Assembly (NCBI RefSeq): GCF_900215435.1
Contig: NZ_OCMY01000001.1
Coordinates: 3,286,001 to 3,350,000, forward strand
DNA length: 64,000 bases
Origin: Candidatus Pantoea floridensis
GTDB taxonomy: Bacteria > Pseudomonadota > Gammaproteobacteria > Enterobacterales > Enterobacteriaceae
Direction: 5' to 3'
The position numbers and the translations under genes were made by a program. Under the pieces are notes generated by a model. It was not told the origin of the DNA and did not search any database. It saw nothing but the letters and a program-made list of their open reading frames with translations. Position 1 is the first letter of the stretch, and each line of letters opens with the position of its first letter. Positions 44,332 through 58,042 of the stretch are shown piece by piece.

Positions 44332-44565
44332 AATTCTCCAAAAATGTGATCTGGCTCGGCTCGGTTGCTTTCGGTAAGTTACTGATTTTTTTGATGAGAA
44401 TGATGATTTTGTTGGCGTAATTCTGATTGTTTCGACGTGATATGAAGGGTGTTAGAAGGGGATGAGGCCGAGTGGTGAACTCACAAGGATAAAGGGTTAC
44501 GTCATCATTTAGAAAACAGCTTTTGAAAGTGCTGGTTACGACCTGCCGCTCTGTGAAATTCAGGC

Positions 44566-44593
44566 AAAAAAAAGCAGCCATAAAGGCTGCTTT
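44566..44593 (-). terminator. Ancestral tRNA-Pro terminator, displaced by the island
   Basis: On the minus strand: stem AAAGCAGCC/GGCTGCTTT with a 5-nt loop and then eight U (44566-44573). It lies 10 nt beyond the left att repeat. Before integration this would have stood directly downstream of the tRNA-Pro gene that now ends 6.3 kb away. Confidence 0.75.
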
Positions 44594-44602
44594 CTTCGGG
44601 AT

Positions 44603-44627
44603 TTTGGTCGGCACGAGAGGATTTGAA
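44603..44627. repeat. Left att direct repeat of the tRNA-Pro island
   Basis: 25 bp, beginning TTTGGTCGGCACGAGAGG, identical to 50869-50893, which includes the last 23 nt of the tRNA-Pro gene with its CCA. This is the usual target of tyrosine integrases. Confidence 0.92.
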
Positions 44628-45017: not shown

Positions 45018-45899
45018 ATGGATAACATGTTGAAATTAAGGACAAAAAATCAGATTTTCAAGTATGAAGTCCCTCTTACAGGCTGTGGGATTCACGACAG
45101 TACATTCACTTTAGACTTTGAAGAAGGAATCTATAGGCAAAATGATCTCGTTGGTCTCATAAGAGATGTAGTACCTTACTTTTCATTAACACAAAGTGAA
45201 CTGGAAGAATTAGAAATATCAGAGTTGCATCGGAGGAGTTTCACTCGTATCTCTGATGCAAGAAAGCAGTCAAAAGGAGATTATGGTGAGCTTCTTTTAT
45301 ATCTGATTCTGAGTATCTTTTATGATGTCCCTAAGTTTGTTACAAAAGCGCGTTTAAGATCAATCACAAGAGAACAAATCAAAGGGTTTGACTGCGCTCA
45401 TTTTTCATTAGATGGAGAAAAAGTTACTTTATGGTTAGGAGAAGCTAAGTTTCATAAAACGCTTAGTAATGCAATCTCGTCAGCACTCGAATCGCTCACA
45501 GAGCATATAGGTGATAAAAATAGAATTAAGAGTGAATTGAGGTTGCTTGGAGGAGAGATTGAAATCAATAAATCATTAGATGAAAATGCCTATTATAAGT
45601 TAAAAAGTTACGTGGATGGTGGTAAATCACTGGATTCAATCGATATAGCCGTTCCGGTATTGCTTACTTACGATAGTAAATATATATCTTCATGTAATGG
45701 GAATAAAAGTACATCTATAAAAAGTGAACCATTTCTTTCCGAGGTCAAAAAAGAGTTACAGACTCATTTCGAGACCATTTATAAAAAGACATGGCCTGAA
45801 GATAAAAATATTAGGTTGGTGTTTTTTCTTTTCCCTTTCGAAAGCGTAACAGAATTAAAAGAAAAAATCGAAATGGTAGAAATGGCGATGAGGTTCTGA
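45018..45899 (+). CDS. hamA: Hachiman HamA-like nuclease (DUF1837)
   Basis: 293 aa. A DUF1837-type PD-(D/E)xK nuclease is indicated by GDYGE (87-91), GFD (123-125) and WLGEAKF (139-145), with Glu142 and Lys144 as the E-x-K pair. In Hachiman, HamA is the DNA-degrading effector held by the helicase HamB. The next gene, 10 nt downstream, encodes a superfamily II helicase, which is the defining pair. Codon use is AT-rich, unlike the flanking core genes. The active site appears intact, so any failure of the system would come from the partner gene. The family call is from motif and context memory, not a search. Confidence 0.82.
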   Translation: MDNMLKLRTKNQIFKYEVPLTGCGIHDSTFTLDFEEGIYRQNDLVGLIRDVVPYFSLTQSELEELEISELHRRSFTRISDARKQSKGDYGELLLYLILSIFYDVPKFVTKARLRSITREQIKGFDCAHFSLDGEKVTLWLGEAKFHKTLSNAISSALESLTEHIGDKNRIKSELRLLGGEIEINKSLDENAYYKLKSYVDGGKSLDSIDIAVPVLLTYDSKYISSCNGNKSTSIKSEPFLSEVKKELQTHFETIYKKTWPEDKNIRLVFFLFPFESVTELKEKIEMVEMAMRF

Positions 45900-45909
45900 A
45901 GGAAATATT

Positions 45910-48156
45910 ATGGAAAATATTTACGATATCGAAATTGAACTCTATGAACTATTTAAAGATAAAGGTCAACTTGATTTCGAAAGAATAGAAAACGCTCTCA
46001 TTCTAATTTACAGAGAATTGGACAACTCTGAGAATTATAATTTATGTGTGAAGTTAATATGCTTTATAGCGGATAAAAAGATTAAGGATAAAATGATTCA
46101 GCAGTTACTTCATGATTGCATCGTTAAATCCAGAATATTTATGTATGATGATATGCTTTCACGTAATGAAATAAACTACAATCCAGAGGTGTCTCCACAG
46201 GATATATTTTTGAGGGGTTTTTATACAAGTTCGAAATCAGAAACGACTTTAACGAAACCTCAAAAGGAAATCTTTAATTCATTTCAAAAAAATAAACGCT
46301 TAATAGTAAGTGCTCCTACCTCTTTCGGTAAAACTAGAATTATCAGAGAAATCATATCGCATAACACCTACAAAGTTATCGTGATAATAATGCCAACCAT
46401 ATCATTGTTATCAGAGGCATATCATGACTTCAAAAATGAATTCAACACTGAATACCTTGTATCAAAGTCATCAAAAATAAAAATAAGCAATGAGAAGAAA
46501 TATATTCTTGTTCTAACCCCTGAGCGTATGAGCGTACTTATTCAGGATAACCCCTCACTGGAAATAGATTTTTTTGTAATGGATGAGGTTTACAAGGCAG
46601 ACTACAAACTCAATGATGAAAGATTCAGAGTTTTTGCAGATGTACTATATAGATTAACAAAGAATGGTGCTGATTTATATCTTATCGGTCCCTACATAAA
46701 TGACTTTAGTAAGAAGTTTAGAGAAAAATTCCATATTACCATGTTGAAGTATGATCTTGAGATAGTACAAAAGGATTACTATGAGTTTGATTATATAAAT
46801 TCACGGGGAATAAAGGAAGTTGAAGGTGTTGTTCTAAAAATAATAGGCGATAAGTACAAAAACTTGTTAAGAGTTACACGGAAAAGCAATGTGGACGGTA
46901 AGTTTTTAATTTATCGCTATCAGAAAAGATATGTAGAACAGTTGGCCGAGAAATTTTTAGAAGATTTACCGTTAGTTCCGTTCAATCAAGAGTTGATAAA
47001 TTATTTGGAGCAAAATATTTCTAAAACGTGGTCTCTAAATGATTGTTTAAAAAAAGGTGTTGCATTCCATCATGGGGCAATGCCAAGACATATTCAAGAT
47101 TTAATCATAGATGAATTTAACTCATCCGAAGGAGATTTGAAATATCTTTTTTGTACTACGTCTTTGACTGAAGGAGTAAATTCAACAGCAAAGAATGTTA
47201 TTTTATATGACTTAAAGATTGGAAATGGCGAGCCATTAGCTAACTTAGATAGAAGAAACATTGAGGGACGAGCAGGACGGTTTATGCGTCACTTTCTTGG
47301 CAGGGTGTTCTATTTTGAAAAAGTAGAGTAGGAATTAGATAAAGTTACCAATGTTGAAATAGAATTTGTTGATAGCACAACGCCGAATATGGAGACTTTA
47401 GTTCAATTAGAAGAACGCGACATAACAGATGAACAGAAGGCAGAATTTGCTAAATTTGTACAGTCATTAAACGAACAAAACATTCCTCTTGCGTTATTGA
47501 AAGAAAATAAGTTTGTAAGCATAACAGGTCAGATTGCGCTGATTAATCATCTGAGAAATATCAGCAATTTTGAACTTTATCACTATACCTCACAGAGACC
47601 TACATTAGATAAAACAGAAGCTATCTTAAGTGTGATTTATGACCACTTATTCACTGAAAATAATAAAGGACAGAGGTTCAATAATGAGAACAGTGAGTAT
47701 GGTAAAAAAATTCTTCTGGATTTAACTAAGTACTACATATATCAGCAACCAACTTTCCATGCATTGCTAAACTCAAGCACAATGAAGTATTTAAGTCCAA
47801 ATGAAAATGCAAGGATTAGACTTACATTTGACACAATAACAAAATACTTTGAGTTTATCTGGCCCCGTTACTTTAAAGCTTTCGAGGTTATATTTAATTT
47901 TGTTGCAATTGAAAAGAACAAAAAACCACTGAGTTTAGATTATATAGTTGCATTACTCGAATATGGAACTAATGAGAATCACGAAATAATCTTGAGGGAT
48001 GCTGGGATACCTAGGGAGATGATTGGTAAACTTTCAGAGTTTTTCATTTCTTGTGAAAACTTTCAAGAAGTCCAAGAGGTATTTAATAAAATCAGAGGAC
48101 AGGTTAAGTCTAGGTTGAGTGAAATCGAGTATAAAATATTTTGTAAATATGTCTAA
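45910..48156 (+). pseudogene. hamB: Hachiman HamB-like SF2 helicase, interrupted by in-frame TAG
   Basis: One frame of 748 codons, broken only by TAG at 47329-47331. The first 473 residues hold the whole helicase core: Walker A APTSFGKT (Lys141), motif Ia MPTISLLSE, DEVY box VMDEVYKAD (225-228), motif V TTSLTEGVNS and motif VI RRNIEGRAGR (Ski2-like). The 274 codons after the stop continue in frame to TAA/TCT-rich sequence ending KIFCKYV and give the C-terminal domain. The next ATG (47389) has no ribosome-binding site, so restart is unlikely. The cell makes either a core-only helicase or, by amber readthrough, the full protein. I class it as a pseudogene with reservation. Confidence 0.78.
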
Positions 48157-48191
48157 TGTATTTGAAAAGCATAAAATAATAGGGCATGGGC

Positions 48192-48723
48192 ATGAAAAAC
48201 TGGTCAACAGAAGACACCAAAGCCGTCAAAACATGGCTGGACATTGAAAACTACAAAAGATTTGAAGAAATCACGCTTTTGGGCAAGAGCGCTCCTTTTT
48301 AAGCCATGGCCTACTGAAGAAGAAAAGGTCGGGCTTGGGGGATACATGAGACAAATCTTCAACGGAAAGCCCATGTTATTCAGATCTGAACAACTCGACT
48401 ACATGGAAGATGACCACACCCTTCAGAGTCCCCCTCATATCTTTGTTACGGATATAACAAGGCTTGCTGAACTCAGCATAACCGCATTGAGAGTTAATCT
48501 CATCTCTTGGGAGCAGGGAAGTGACGAGTATGGTGTTAACTTGCCTCAACACGATGCTTATGTTTCAACTGTCATGTCAGCAATATGTGAGAAAACAGTT
48601 CTTCTGGAAATCGATCTTGCCAGTGGTACAGACGACGAAATTGCAGAGTCAATCAAAACAGCACTTCCGCAATGGCGGAGCGTGAAAGGCATAAAAGCAG
48701 ACGAGTCAGGTGCGGTACGCTTC
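48192..48723 (+). pseudogene. Frameshifted, IS-truncated gene of unknown function
   Basis: A good start (MKNWSTEDTKAVKTWLDIENY) runs 36 codons to a stop at 48300-48302. The +1 frame then stays open from ~48244 and reads LLFKPWPTEEEKVGLGG to GADESGAVRF-like sequence, where the TGA stop is formed by the first three bases of the IS. The protein thus has a frameshift (or small deletion) near 48270-48300 and a lost C-terminus. It resembles proteins that accompany integrases on islands (possibly DUF6387), but I am not sure of that. Confidence 0.6.
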
Positions 48724-48794
48724 TGACCTGCTCCCCGTTGATTAACACACCGCGATGTTAGTAATGTCTTCATAAACCACATGAGGACATCCCC

Positions 48795-49058
48795 ATGAAG
48801 AAGCGTTTTTCTGACGAACAGATCATCAGTATTCTCCGCGAGGCCGAGGCTGGCATTTCCGCCCGTGAGCTTTGCCGTAAGCATGCTATTTCTGACGCAA
48901 CCTTTTACACCTGGCGTAAGAAGTTTGGGGGCATGGAAGTCCCTGAAGTAAAACGCCTTAAGTCGCTTGAAGAAGAGAACGCCCGTCTCAAGAAGTTGCT
49001 TGCAGAAGCTATGCTGGATAAGGAAGCATTACAGGTAGCGTTGGGCCGAAAGTACTGA
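48795..49058 (+). CDS. IS3-family transposase OrfA
   Basis: 87 aa: N-terminal HTH ([22 protein letters not shown], given in part; [17 protein letters not shown]) and a C-terminal leucine-zipper-like helix ([20 protein letters not shown]). It is expected to form the OrfAB fusion by -1 frameshifting near the CCGAAAG before its stop, since the orfB frame is open there. Confidence 0.94.
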
Positions 49059-49087
49059 CGACAGACCACAAGCGGGAAGCTGTTGTA

Positions 49088-49915
49088 GTGATGTGTAAAG
49101 CGACGGGTCTGTCGCAACGTCGAGCCTGCAGGCTGACTGGTTTGTCCCTGTCGACCTGCCGCTATGACGCTCAGCGTCCGGCGGCTGATGCCCATTTATC
49201 AGGGCGCATTACTGAACTGGCACTGGAGCGCAGGCGTTTTGGCTACCGCCGCATCTGGCAGCTGCTGCGCCGTGAAGGGCTTCTGGTTAATCACAAGCGC
49301 GTGTACCGTCTTTATCATCTGAACGGGCTGGGCGTTAAACGCAGACGTCGTCGTAAAGGGCTTGCAACAGAACGTCTGCCGCTGCTCCGCCCGGCGGCGC
49401 CCAACATGACCTGGTCGATGGATTTCGTCATGGATGCGCTGGCTACTGGTCGCAGGATCAAGTGCCTTACCTGCGTCGATGACTTCACAAAGGAATGCCT
49501 GACGGTCACTGTTGCCTTCGGGATTTCAGGCGTGCAGGTCACGCGTATTCTGGACAGCATTGCGCTGTTTCGCGGCTATCCGGCTACGATAAGAACCGAT
49601 CAGGGCCCTGAGTTTACCTGCCGCGCGCTCGATCAGTGGGCCTTTGAGCATGGAGTGGAGCTGCGACTTATCCAGCCCGGCAAGCCGACACAGAACGGAT
49701 TTATTGAGAGTTTTAACGGACGCTTTCGCGATGAATGCCTGAATGAACACTGGTTCAGCGACGTCAGTCATGCCAGGAAAACCATCAGCGAATGGCGTCA
49801 GGATTATAACGAATGTCGCCCGCACTCCACGCTGAATTATCAGACGCTGTCTGAATTTGCAGCGGGCTGGAGAAAGGGTAATTCTGAGAGTGAAGGATCC
49901 GACATTACTAACTGA
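49088..49915 (+). CDS. IS3-family transposase OrfB (DDE catalytic part)
   Basis: 275 aa from ATG at 49088; the frame is open upstream to about 49052, in the -1 register relative to orfA. HTH_21-type segment ([20 protein letters not shown]) and integrase core with the DDE triad in [20 protein letters not shown] and [11 protein letters not shown]. No damage is seen, so the element may still be active. Confidence 0.94.
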
Positions 49916-50868: not shown

Positions 50869-50893
50869 TTTGGTCGGCACGAGAGGATTTGAA
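50869..50893. repeat. Right att direct repeat (within tRNA-Pro)
   Basis: Identical 25 bp to 44603-44627. It covers the 3' acceptor strand, the CCA and part of the T arm of the tRNA, so integration restored a whole tRNA gene. Confidence 0.92.
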
Positions 50894-50947
50894 CCTCCGA
50901 CCCCGGACACCCCATGACCGTGCGCTACCAGGCTGCGCTACGTGCCG
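50871..50947 (-). tRNA. proL: tRNA-Pro (anticodon GGG)
   Basis: 77 nt with encoded CCA. The minus strand begins CGGCACGTAGCGCAGCCTGG, has the anticodon stem-loop CGGTCATGGGGTGTCCG with anticodon GGG, a T-arm GGTTCAAATCC and acceptor CGTGCCG-A-CCA. It closely matches E. coli proL, which also lies beside yejM. It is the integration site of the island. Confidence 0.96.
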
Positions 50948-54238: not shown

Positions 54239-57200
54239 TCAGAAAGAATAGTTCAGCGAACCGTTGAGTGCGGTGTCGGTCTGATACTTTCCGCCTGCAC
54301 TGTGCTTCACCCCTACCTGCAATGACCAGTTATCGCTGATCGGCCCCTCAAATCCTACATGCAGGCGATAGCGGTTGTCGCTCCACGCGTTGTAGACGCG
54401 GCTGGCGTGGCTGTCTGCAAGCGTCAGCGTTGAGCTGCTGCTGCCCGGCGAATATTGCTTGCTGATATCAGCGAACAGTGACACCTCTGGCAGCACAGAA
54501 CCCAGACCACGCTTTCTCAGTGCAATGCCGGGTGATACCGACCACGGCGTGGCGCTGCTTAATGCGATATCGGCATCGTAACCCTGCAGCTGATAGCCCG
54601 GCAGATAGCCGACGCGGGTTTCCAGGTAAGGTGAGAAGGTGAAGGAATCATCAAACAGCGCGATTTCACGCCCCGCTTTTGCGCTTGCCGCCAGCATCTG
54701 GCTGGTGCGCTGCGTGCCTTGTACCTCCAGCGCCGGATCCAGCTTTAAATCCTGACGCAGGTGGATATAGCGTGCCGCCAGGTCGGTAAACCAGCCGCTA
54801 TCTGCCAGCCAGGTGGCATAGGTGCCGAAAGTACTGAGCTGATTTTTAATCGAGCCCGCACCTTTCGCGCTACCCAAACCATGGCTGGCCATCAGGCCAT
54901 ACCGCCACGCGCCGTCCTGTTTATCTGCGCCCAGTTCAAACGCCTGCTGCTGAATGTTAACGCCCGCTACGCCGCCGTGGTTATAGCTATAACCGCCCCA
55001 GACGCCGTGCATCTGCACATCGCCATGCAGCGTTTGCGCGCGATCGTTAAGTGAAGCGGTAATTTCACTGAACAGATACTGTCGTGACGCCAGCAGCGCG
55101 CGGGTATTGTGCAGCAGACCGTTATTATCGCTGATGATAAACCAGTCTTCCGGTTTACCCGGCTCGGGTACGGGATCGATAACCGGTTCGGGTTTTGGAT
55201 CCGGAGTCGGGTCGACCACTGGATCCGGCGTCGGCACCGGAACGGGATCAATCACCGGCACCGGCGTTTTCGCGATGATCCACTTCACGCGGCCCGCGTC
55301 CTCAATGACCTGATAGTCCGGGGTGTAGAGGGAGAATCCCCGTCCGATCGGCGGCAGGGTGAAGTAGTCATGCGCGGTGCCGGCCGGCGCATCCAGCAAT
55401 ACGATCTGGTTCGGAACCTTATCCGGGAAGGTTTCGCCGAGCATAAAGCCGAGATCAAGCGTGTTGCCAGCGCCCTGCGCCGATTTATCAATGTACAGGC
55501 TGTCGCTGATGCCGGTTTGCGGGGCAATACCAAAACCCAGCTGCAGGTTGTTGGCATACAGATCTTCTACCCACAGCTGTTTAGGCTGCCAGGTTTTATC
55601 GTCATCGGCGAGCGTCGAGATAATGCCGCCCTGCGGCGCGCTGAGGCGCTGCATGCGGCTGTCGCCCGTCAGGTTCCAGAAGGTTTCACCCGACATCGTA
55701 ACCCGCGCGGTATTCCGGTCGGTGATGCGGCCACGTAAGTCGACCTTACCGAGATGAAGTTCAGCCTGGTCGCCCAGAGTGATATCGCCGTGTACCGTAC
55801 TGGCGGGCAGGGCGCGTAACGCTGCTGCATCACGCGCTGCGGTTTCGCAGGAGGTTGCAGTGCTCTGTACCGGCGAAACGCAGCGTAAAATCTGGTGTTG
55901 ATCGTCCGCTCCGGGCTGGTAACCCAGCAGCACCTGGCTGTTGTCACCGGCCTGAATGTTGGCTTTCACCTGCGCGTATTCGCCCACCTGCAGCCGCGTG
56001 TTACTGGCGGCGACGATGTTGTCAGCAATAAAGGTTGAGGTGTACCAGTCGTCATCGATGATCAGGCCGCCGGCGTGCGGTACCGGCTGGCCGGAGAGCA
56101 GCAGCGTGCCGTTATTCACATTAATGTTGCCATTGATATTACTGCCGCCGGTCAGCGCCAGCCTGGCAGCAGACATTTCCGGTGAGAAATCAAAGTTAAA
56201 CTGGCCGTTGACGCCGTCCGGATCGTAAGAGCCGATATAGCCGCGGTAGACCAGATTATTGAACTGCATGGCGCGGTAGGCTCGCGCTTCTTCTGCGTCA
56301 AAACCGATATATTTCCAGTAGCTATTGTCCTGCTGATTGGTCGGGAACCAGCTGTAGGTGCTGGTTTTAAGCTGGAAGTATTCAATGCGCTGCGAGCGGT
56401 CGTTCCAGTCTTCGTAAATATCGCCAATAGTGCCCGCATGGGTGGCGGAATCCCACTCCTGAATGGTGATATCAGCAGGTTTGAAGCCGGTCAGCGTCAG
56501 GCTGGCAGCGCGATCGGCGCTCTGGTTTATCAGCGTGGCACCGCTGTCGGTGTGGTTAATTTTTTTCATCGTCAGGTCGTGGCCGTTCAGATCGAGCCTG
56601 CCGCCGCGATAGCCGAAGAAAATATCGTCACCTGCAACCTGGTTATCGCCATTGAGAACGACCATCGGGCGGCCGCTGACGATCATCACTCGTGAGAAAG
56701 CCTGCTGATTGCCCTGATCGTCGGCCTGCTGATCGAGAATGACGGTGCCGTCGCCGACGTTGAGGCCGCCTTGGTTTTTGCCTTTGGCGTTGACGTGCAG
56801 CGTACCAGCGCCAATTTTATGCAGGTCATCATCGGCAAGGCCATTGACCTGCCACAGCACCTTTTTGTCCGCGTCGACTTCAATACCGCCGCCAACCCAG
56901 GTGGCAGTAGCGCCCTCCGCTGATTTCACGGTGTAGTTATTTGAGAACTGTAGCTTGCCAGCACCGAGATTAACGGCATCGCTCAGGATGATGTCACCGC
57001 CCGCGCCGTTGAAGCGGATATCTTTGCTGGCATCAAGCTCATCGAAACTGGCATTAACCGGAGCAAGATGACGATATTTTCCGTCCAAACCCTGCCAGCT
57101 CCAGTTTTGATCTCCCTGATTAATTGATGCGGGATCCCAGACAATATTTCCCGCACCTGCAATGTCAGTTACATCGGGTGAAATATTATCTGCCACAATT

Positions 57201-58042
57201 TTATCGAAAAAATCATCAGGGATTAATGAAGCATAAGACTCCCTGGTATAGGGGGGGCTACCATATCTACTACCAGAATGGGCAGCTGCTAATTTCCATT
57301 GTTTATCGAATGAATCATAAACGTAGACAGGACTACCACTATCACCGGGCTGGGTAGTAATAGAGAGTGGCGTCGATAGTGGGCTACCAGGGGCGTACTG
57401 CTTGTAATAAAAGTAATTCTTTGTGAACTCGACGACAGCCGGATTAATAACACCTCCTGCAAGCCATTTGTATGCGCCTGAGATTTGGTTAACATCCGTT
57501 AAGTCGTCATTAATCTGAACCATACCTCCTGAACCAACGCGAGCATAGGCGGTATATCGTGTCCCATGGCCTGCCTTTAATTCACTGTTTTCTACGCGTC
57601 CAACAGGTGCGACTTCCGTTACAACCTTATTCAGGCGTGGAAACATGAAGTCCTGATCAATCGCGTCATATACGGCGTTGCGATTAATAAAATGGTAGCG
57701 CTGAGCATATTCTGACGGGCCACCAAAAAAAACGCTGGTCAAGTCTTTTACATGGCGCGCGCTCATCATATAAGACGGTGCCGTTAACACCGCATAACCC
57801 CGACGAGATACACTGCTCATGTCCGGCATCGGGAAATCAAGATAGCCGTCCAGCTCGCCATTTTTTTTATAAACCGGAATATTACTCACCCCGACGCGGT
57901 ATTTGCCCATATTTTCCGCAAAGTCGCGATAGTCCTGCACATTGGTGTCATGCCGCATAACGCCTGCTGAGGAAGACAGGCAGATAAACAGCGTGCCGTA
58001 AGAGATGATGTTGGCTTTTTTCACATGAATTCCCTTTCTCAT
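54239..58042 (-). CDS. S6-family serine protease autotransporter
   Basis: 1267 aa, type Va secretion. Short signal (KKANIISYGTLFICLSSSAG) with cleavage near residue 26. Chymotrypsin-like S6 domain with His97 (MMSARHVKD), likely Asp131 (DQDFMFPRLNK) and Ser235 (GDSGSPVYVY). Then a beta-helix passenger with the SPATE/IgA-protease signature GGRLDLNGHDLTMKKI. A Pro/Asp-rich linker (PVPVPTPDPVVDPTPDPKPE and more, ~residues 955-990) leads to a 12-strand barrel ending NYSF. The usual SPATE cleavage motif (EVNNLNKRMGDLRD) is not present. An alternative GTG start at 58024 has its own AAAGGGA. It is inserted between yejK and rplY, which are neighbours in E. coli. Confidence 0.9.
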   Translation of the reverse strand: MRKGIHVKKANIISYGTLFICLSSSAGVMRHDTNVQDYRDFAENMGKYRVGVSNIPVYKKNGELDGYLDFPMPDMSSVSRRGYAVLTAPSYMMSARHVKDLTSVFFGGPSEYAQRYHFINRNAVYDAIDQDFMFPRLNKVVTEVAPVGRVENSELKAGHGTRYTAYARVGSGGMVQINDDLTDVNQISGAYKWLAGGVINPAVVEFTKNYFYYKQYAPGSPLSTPLSITTQPGDSGSPVYVYDSFDKQWKLAAAHSGSRYGSPPYTRESYASLIPDDFFDKIVADNISPDVTDIAGAGNIVWDPASINQGDQNWSWQGLDGKYRHLAPVNASFDELDASKDIRFNGAGGDIILSDAVNLGAGKLQFSNNYTVKSAEGATATWVGGGIEVDADKKVLWQVNGLADDDLHKIGAGTLHVNAKGKNQGGLNVGDGTVILDQQADDQGNQQAFSRVMIVSGRPMVVLNGDNQVAGDDIFFGYRGGRLDLNGHDLTMKKINHTDSGATLINQSADRAASLTLTGFKPADITIQEWDSATHAGTIGDIYEDWNDRSQRIEYFQLKTSTYSWFPTNQQDNSYWKYIGFDAEEARAYRAMQFNNLVYRGYIGSYDPDGVNGQFNFDFSPEMSAARLALTGGSNINGNINVNNGTLLLSGQPVPHAGGLIIDDDWYTSTFIADNIVAASNTRLQVGEYAQVKANIQAGDNSQVLLGYQPGADDQHQILRCVSPVQSTATSCETAARDAAALRALPASTVHGDITLGDQAELHLGKVDLRGRITDRNTARVTMSGETFWNLTGDSRMQRLSAPQGGIISTLADDDKTWQPKQLWVEDLYANNLQLGFGIAPQTGISDSLYIDKSAQGAGNTLDLGFMLGETFPDKVPNQIVLLDAPAGTAHDYFTLPPIGRGFSLYTPDYQVIEDAGRVKWIIAKTPVPVIDPVPVPTPDPVVDPTPDPKPEPVIDPVPEPGKPEDWFIISDNNGLLHNTRALLASRQYLFSEITASLNDRAQTLHGDVQMHGVWGGYSYNHGGVAGVNIQQQAFELGADKQDGAWRYGLMASHGLGSAKGAGSIKNQLSTFGTYATWLADSGWFTDLAARYIHLRQDLKLDPALEVQGTQRTSQMLAASAKAGREIALFDDSFTFSPYLETRVGYLPGYQLQGYDADIALSSATPWSVSPGIALRKRGLGSVLPEVSLFADISKQYSPGSSSSTLTLADSHASRVYNAWSDNRYRLHVGFEGPISDNWSLQVGVKHSAGGKYQTDTALNGSLNYSF

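What the first reader, a model, noticed from the sequence alone, without database searches (positions are those of the whole stretch)
45018..48156. Hachiman-type defence pair in a tRNA-Pro island, helicase frame cut by one TAG
Seen: a DUF1837-like nuclease with GFD and E-x-K residues intact, followed after 10 nt by an SF2 helicase that is complete in one frame except for TAG at 47329. The stop falls exactly between the helicase core and the C-terminal domain. Known: HamA is a nuclease kept in check and activated through HamB. Inference: a core-only HamB would either free HamA (toxic), leave the system silent, or form a regulated short form. The intact, presumably toxic nuclease next to a broken partner makes the allele worth testing.
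Basis: partly seen in the sequence, partly recalled or inferred. Interest (0 to 1): 0.75.

Follow-up and report, generated by a model that had tools for sequence, protein, structure and literature searches.

The report
Broken Hachiman phage-defence pair
A known bacterial anti-phage system (Hachiman) sits in a small, decaying mobile island, and its helicase gene appears to have been cut very recently by a stop codon, which most likely leaves the system silent rather than dangerous.

Summary
Window 45018-45899 is an intact HamA (PF08878, E 5.5e-35; D125, E142 and K144 invariant in 24 of 24 aligned sequences). Ten bases later comes a HamB helicase frame cut by TAG at 47329, at the end of the second RecA domain; the C-terminal part follows in the same frame. 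The pair lies in a 6.3-kb island bounded by 25-bp tRNA-Pro repeats; the four other relatives I fetched have an uninterrupted site. The host is probably Pantoea. A sister genome (G046) carries the same island, 94% identical, with HamA intact and HamB broken elsewhere. The integrase is truncated in both.

Codons after the stop show the same constraint as the rest (dN/dS about 0.1), so the lesion looks very young. Published ECOR31 work reports that loss of HamA or HamB ends defence, HamA is insoluble alone, and cells with complex-disrupting mutations stay viable; it also notes more drug sensitivity with mutant HamB than mutant HamA. Best reading: a recent null allele in a decaying island. "Freed toxic HamA" is weakly supported; of 11 other short relatives among the 120 listed, none ends at this boundary. 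An ordinary broken member of a known system.

The parts
44603..44627 (+). distal 25-bp direct repeat of the tRNA-Pro 3' end (island boundary)
   Evidence: exact 25-mer at 44603 and 50869 on the + strand of the window; single copy in each of the 4 uninterrupted sites fetched from relatives
45018..45899 (+). hamA, intact DUF1837 nuclease subunit, 293 aa, D125/E142/K144
45910..47331 (+). hamB, N-terminal helical region plus RecA1 and RecA2 core, 473 aa, ends in TAG 47329-47331
47332..48156 (+). hamB remainder (C-terminal part) in the same frame after the stop; ATG at 47389 lacks a ribosome-binding-like sequence
48186..48726 (+). remnant of a DUF6387 gene: 20-nt gap relative to the G046 copy near 48277 and missing its 3' end
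   Evidence: PF19924 positions 34-178 of 258 for ORF 48244-48723; gap
48795..49915 (+). IS3-type element (type by recall), two transposase ORFs
   Evidence: PF01527, PF13276, PF00665, PF13683
49942..50655 (-). broken phage-type integrase: arm domain 50655-50389 and central domain 50352-49942, no catalytic domain matched
   Evidence: PF13356, PF22022; one open frame in G046 over the same part
50869..50893 (+). 25-bp repeat at the tRNA-Pro 3' end (other island boundary)
50871..50947 (-). tRNA-Pro (ggg), integration target

Best explanation
A Hachiman anti-phage operon (HamA nuclease, HamB Ski2-like sensor helicase) arrived on a small integrase-bearing island that inserted at tRNA-Pro. The island has since lost a working integrase, taken in an IS element, and its hamB has very recently acquired a nonsense codon right after the second RecA domain. 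The product, if stable, keeps the region that by position corresponds to the HamA-contacting N-terminal helical domain of ECOR31 HamB, and the ATPase core, but lacks what follows, where in ECOR31 the winged-helix and C-terminal helical domains form the DNA cleft. It should therefore neither sense DNA ends properly nor ratchet to activate HamA, so the system is silent and close to harmless. Shown here: the genes, the stop, the boundary, the island, the lack of relaxed constraint, and a second, different break in a sister genome. Inferred from published work on a distant homologue: loss of sensing and harmlessness.
For: Profiles and folds; stop at the end of the RecA core; island with 25-bp repeats, and an uninterrupted site in each of the 4 other relatives fetched; integrase, DUF6387 gene and hamB all broken; second copy in G046 with HamA intact and a different HamB lesion, a frameshift in an A-run; dN/dS 0.10 for HamA, 0.05 for the HamB N piece, 0.10 for the HamB C piece, and 1 of 9 amino-acid differences scored in the C piece is window-derived, so the lesion looks young; published ECOR31 genetics and structure (PMC12278908).
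Against: Conservation of the C piece is also what a frame still in use would give. ECOR31 HamB (1174 aa) is a distant homologue, so silence and harmlessness are carried over. The same paper reports more drug sensitivity with mutant HamB than with mutant HamA, which hints that a defective HamB may not be entirely neutral under DNA damage. No expression data. The single base is unverified, and the G046 lesion sits in an adenine run and may be an assembly error.
Confidence: 0.76

Rival explanations
1. Core-only HamB is a stable short form that still holds HamA in an inactive complex or gives an altered, regulated response.
For: The stop falls at a clean domain boundary, and the N-terminal region that contacts HamA in ECOR31 lies in the N piece.
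Against: 108 of the 120 HamB relatives listed are 700 aa or longer; of the other 12 only the window's own cluster ends at this boundary. G046 and a Cronobacter sequence break elsewhere. In the published structure DNA binding uses domains missing here.
Confidence: 0.08
2. The stop is an assembly or sequencing error, or a minority allele of the culture.
For: The codons after it show normal constraint; the G046 lesion lies in an adenine run, a typical error site.
Against: The window lesion is a base substitution, not a run-length change, in a 5-contig assembly rated 100% complete; neighbouring island genes are broken too.
Confidence: 0.08
3. Intact HamA is left unrestrained by the broken HamB and harms the host.
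For: HamA degrades cellular DNA when activated (abstract); strains with mutant HamB were more sensitive to mitomycin C and bleomycin than HamA mutants; ectopic Hachiman expression is mildly toxic (passage).
Against: HamA insoluble without HamB; cells with interface mutations viable. Two sequenced genomes carry intact HamA beside a broken HamB.
Confidence: 0.05
4. The stop is read through or suppressed, so some full-length HamB is made.
For: Conserved C piece in frame.
Against: 5 of the 24 other window genes I picked end in TAG, so TAG serves as a stop here; youth of the lesion explains the conservation. No search for a suppressor tRNA or a recoding signal was made.
Confidence: 0.03

Closest known systems
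Hachiman HamAB, E. coli ECOR31 (PDB 8VX9/8VXA/8VXY; Tuck et al. 2024)
   Different: ECOR31 HamB is 1174 aa while the close relatives of the window HamB are about 745 aa; HamA shows no sequence match to it at 0.001; the window HamB is cut after the RecA core
AbpAB of E. coli (PDB 8zue)
   Different: AbpA carries an N-terminal Cap4 nuclease and a HamA-like domain with inactive residues (passages of PMC10732053 and PMC12278908); the window HamA has no such N-terminal domain and keeps D/E/K
Intact relative in Rahnella laticis (L021)
   Same: HamA 72%, HamB N piece 72% and C piece 56% identical, same gene order; an integrase-like ORF lies upstream (by look)
   Different: HamB is complete at 744 aa
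Same island in sister genome G046 (L022)
   Same: Same tRNA-Pro site and 25-bp repeats, 94.4% identical over a 4189-base alignment, HamA intact
   Different: HamB broken by a frameshift at another position; other transposase-like ORFs lie against the integrase (by look)

Membership tests
Hachiman (HamA subunit) | DUF1837/HamA domain with D-ExK nuclease residues | tested here: met
   PF08878 121.7 bits against a cut-off of 25; D125, E142, K144 invariant in 24 of 24
Hachiman (HamB subunit) | Ski2-like SF2 helicase core of HamB type | tested here: met
   PDLC00184 E 2.4e-196; DEAD and Helicase_C domains; Walker A, motif II and motif VI columns present in the alignment (motif names recalled)
Hachiman (HamB subunit) | Complete HamB with its C-terminal domains in one polypeptide | tested here: not met
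   In-frame TAG at 47329; remainder lies beyond the stop
Hachiman | Adjacent hamA-hamB genes | tested here: met
   10-nt gap, same strand
Hachiman | Confers phage protection | not testable with these tools
   needs a bench assay
AbpAB | AbpA with an N-terminal Cap4 nuclease domain fused to a HamA-like domain | tested here: not met
   Window HamA is 293 aa and shows only PF08878 in Pfam at 0.01

The most novel reading that the evidence does not exclude
HamB is lost recurrently and independently while HamA is kept (window, G046, possibly a Cronobacter strain), either because HamB is an on/off site with adenine runs acting as a switch, or because a HamA with a core-only HamB still does something useful. 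The sensor would then be the evolutionary valve of the system.
Probability: 0.06. Interest if true: 0.5.

Novelty: new member of a known kind. Interest (0 to 1): 0.22.

Why it matters
It shows a Hachiman operon decaying through its sensor subunit while the nuclease gene stays open, which fits the published view that HamA needs HamB for activation. The truncation at a domain boundary also suggests a simple test of which HamB domains hold HamA and which trigger it.

Tried and rejected
Bias towards hamB lesions: hamB is 2247 of 3129 coding bases (72%), so two independent lesions both falling in hamB has a chance of about 0.52 by length alone; no special force is needed.

Third case: P0087 (Cronobacter sakazakii, 375 aa) matches the 745-aa P0007 at 99% over residues 1-368 and then diverges. 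HamA cluster P0123 lists the same longest contig length, but whether both lie on one contig was not proved. Several of the other short hits are on contigs under 5 kb and may be edge cuts.

Surveys, each tally including the window genome itself: HamB N piece in relatives 17 of 99; HamA in the genus 6 of 61 and in the family 12 of 392; an intact HamB relative in the order 10 of 394 and in the class 2 of 369 at 1e-30. In some searches every match other than the window genome was at 37% identity or less and had no internal stop. The family, order and class samples are draws from larger groups, and no match to G046 appears in their answers, so they may miss close copies. Genome contigs gave one confirmed relative, Rahnella, of 33 pattern matches; viral contigs gave 3 pattern matches and no confirmed relative. 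No match in E. coli genomes or plasmids at megablast level.

No promoter excess: 11 sites against a shuffle mean of 17.4. The C piece has no PDB sequence match better than E 0.84. No suppressor tRNA search was made.

Literature: Hachiman with HamA and HamB 19 papers, with pseudogene 6, with Pantoea 3, a looser search on truncated or incomplete systems 15, of which 14 listed. I saw listings, passages of PMC12322248, PMC12479173, PMC10732053 and PMC11514479, and of PMC12278908 the abstract, passages and Results parts 1 and 2. None of what I saw reports this allele; most of those papers were not opened.

Full report
Observation. The sequence contains what was described. HamA is 45018-45899, HamB starts at 45910, an in-frame TAG stands at 47329-47331, and the rest of HamB continues in the same frame to 48156. 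Both parts match the same PADLOC HamB profile in consecutive stretches, 5-474 and 495-738 of 738. HamA passes the Pfam HamA cut-off (121.7 bits against 25), and its D125, E142 and K144 are invariant in 24 of 24 aligned sequences. NCBIfam named neither protein, and HamA has no PDB match by sequence at 0.001.

Island. A 25-bp repeat of the tRNA-Pro 3' end lies at 44603 and 50869. Island GC is 0.393 against 0.535 and 0.542 in the flanks. In the four other relatives I fetched (G059, G004, G028, G052, at 87-88% in the neighbouring gene) the sequence matching the left flank at 44560-44627 runs straight into the tRNA, with one copy of the repeat: 4 of 4. Between that short match and the next shared gene these relatives have other sequence of varying length. 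The island holds a broken integrase without a matched catalytic domain, an IS3-type element, a damaged DUF6387 gene and the Hachiman pair.

Host. The host genome has a 4.41-Mb chromosome and a 742-kb second contig. A 12-kb stretch of its third contig matched 8 plasmid records: the best two are Pantoea (84.7% over 45% and 74.5% over 11% of the query), the others short matches to Methylocystis (3) and Klebsiella (3). I take the host to be Pantoea; this is an inference.

A second copy. Of 61 genomes of the genus, the window's included, 6 have a HamA match and only G046 has a close one besides the window itself, 97% identical. G046 carries the same island at the same tRNA. The island is 94.4% identical over a 4189-base alignment, while the neighbouring flanks are 84-89%, so it was probably exchanged more recently than the two species split. 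In G046 HamA is intact, HamB is sense at the window's stop but its frame ends after 604 aa through a frameshift in an adenine run, and other transposase-like ORFs (by look) lie against the integrase. The G046 lesion could be an assembly error.

Age of the lesion. Between window and G046, dN/dS is 0.10 for HamA (10 non-synonymous, 23 synonymous differences), 0.05 for the HamB N piece (16.5, 67.5) and 0.10 for the C piece (12, 25). Amino-acid differences were polarised by majority of three relatives (P0002-P0004 for HamB). In the N piece 7 are window-derived, 6 G046-derived and 1 unpolarised. In the C piece 1 is window-derived, 5 G046-derived and 3 unpolarised; this count covers 226 of the 255 C residues, leaving out about 29 around the frameshift and the 19 codons between the stop and 47389. 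There is no sign of relaxed constraint after the stop, so the lesion looks recent.

Is a short form known? Of 225 HamB relatives at 1e-60 the best 120 were listed. Of these 108 are at least 700 aa and 12 are shorter. Mapped on the window pieces, only the window's own cluster ends at 473; of the other 11, six or seven run on past it, and four end before it (residues 291-372) (P0017 runs 64 residues past its match, which ends at 470). The ATG at 47389 is not preceded by a ribosome-binding-like sequence, unlike hamA and hamB (by eye), and 5 of the 24 other window genes I picked end in TAG (gene names recalled). Neither restart nor general suppression is favoured.

Mechanism. In ECOR31, HamB's N-terminal helical domain binds HamA, the winged-helix and C-terminal helical domains form the likely DNA cleft, and helicase ratcheting is proposed to activate HamA (PMC12278908, Results parts 1 and 2). 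Deleting either gene ends defence; HamA is insoluble alone; cells with interface mutations are viable. A core-only HamB should thus fail to sense DNA and leave HamA inactive. This step is inferred from a distant homologue. Against full harmlessness, the same paper found mutant-HamB strains more sensitive to mitomycin C and bleomycin than mutant-HamA strains and mild toxicity on ectopic expression. The toxic-HamA idea is therefore not excluded, but silence is better supported.

Verdict. This is most likely a recently broken member of a known system in a decaying island. The parallel break in G046 is worth a note but is expected from gene length alone about half the time.

Noticed in passing
L008 (G055), around 661-2643: A distant HamB/AbpB-like gene in the same genus with one in-frame TGA; no HamA match in that genome at 1e-3 with the window HamA.
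   Followed up: no
L004 (G043), L005 (G023), L006 (G057): AbpAB-like pairs: HamA-like matches in open frames of 485-488 aa beside HamB-like frames of 727-734 aa. Their N-terminal domains were not searched.
   Followed up: partly
L022 11978-14068: In G046 three genes that look like an arsenic-resistance set (by recall) lie just outside the distal repeat of the island; G059 has a similar pump-like and a further gene at the same site.
   Followed up: no
PDB 8zue: The entry title calls it the Hachiman system of E. coli while its chain B is named anti-bacteriophage protein B (AbpB), a naming overlap to watch.
   Followed up: no
window 54239-58042: A 1267-aa protein with an autotransporter-like look (by recall), much less conserved in G046 (71% nucleotide identity over 901 bases) than its neighbours.
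   Followed up: no
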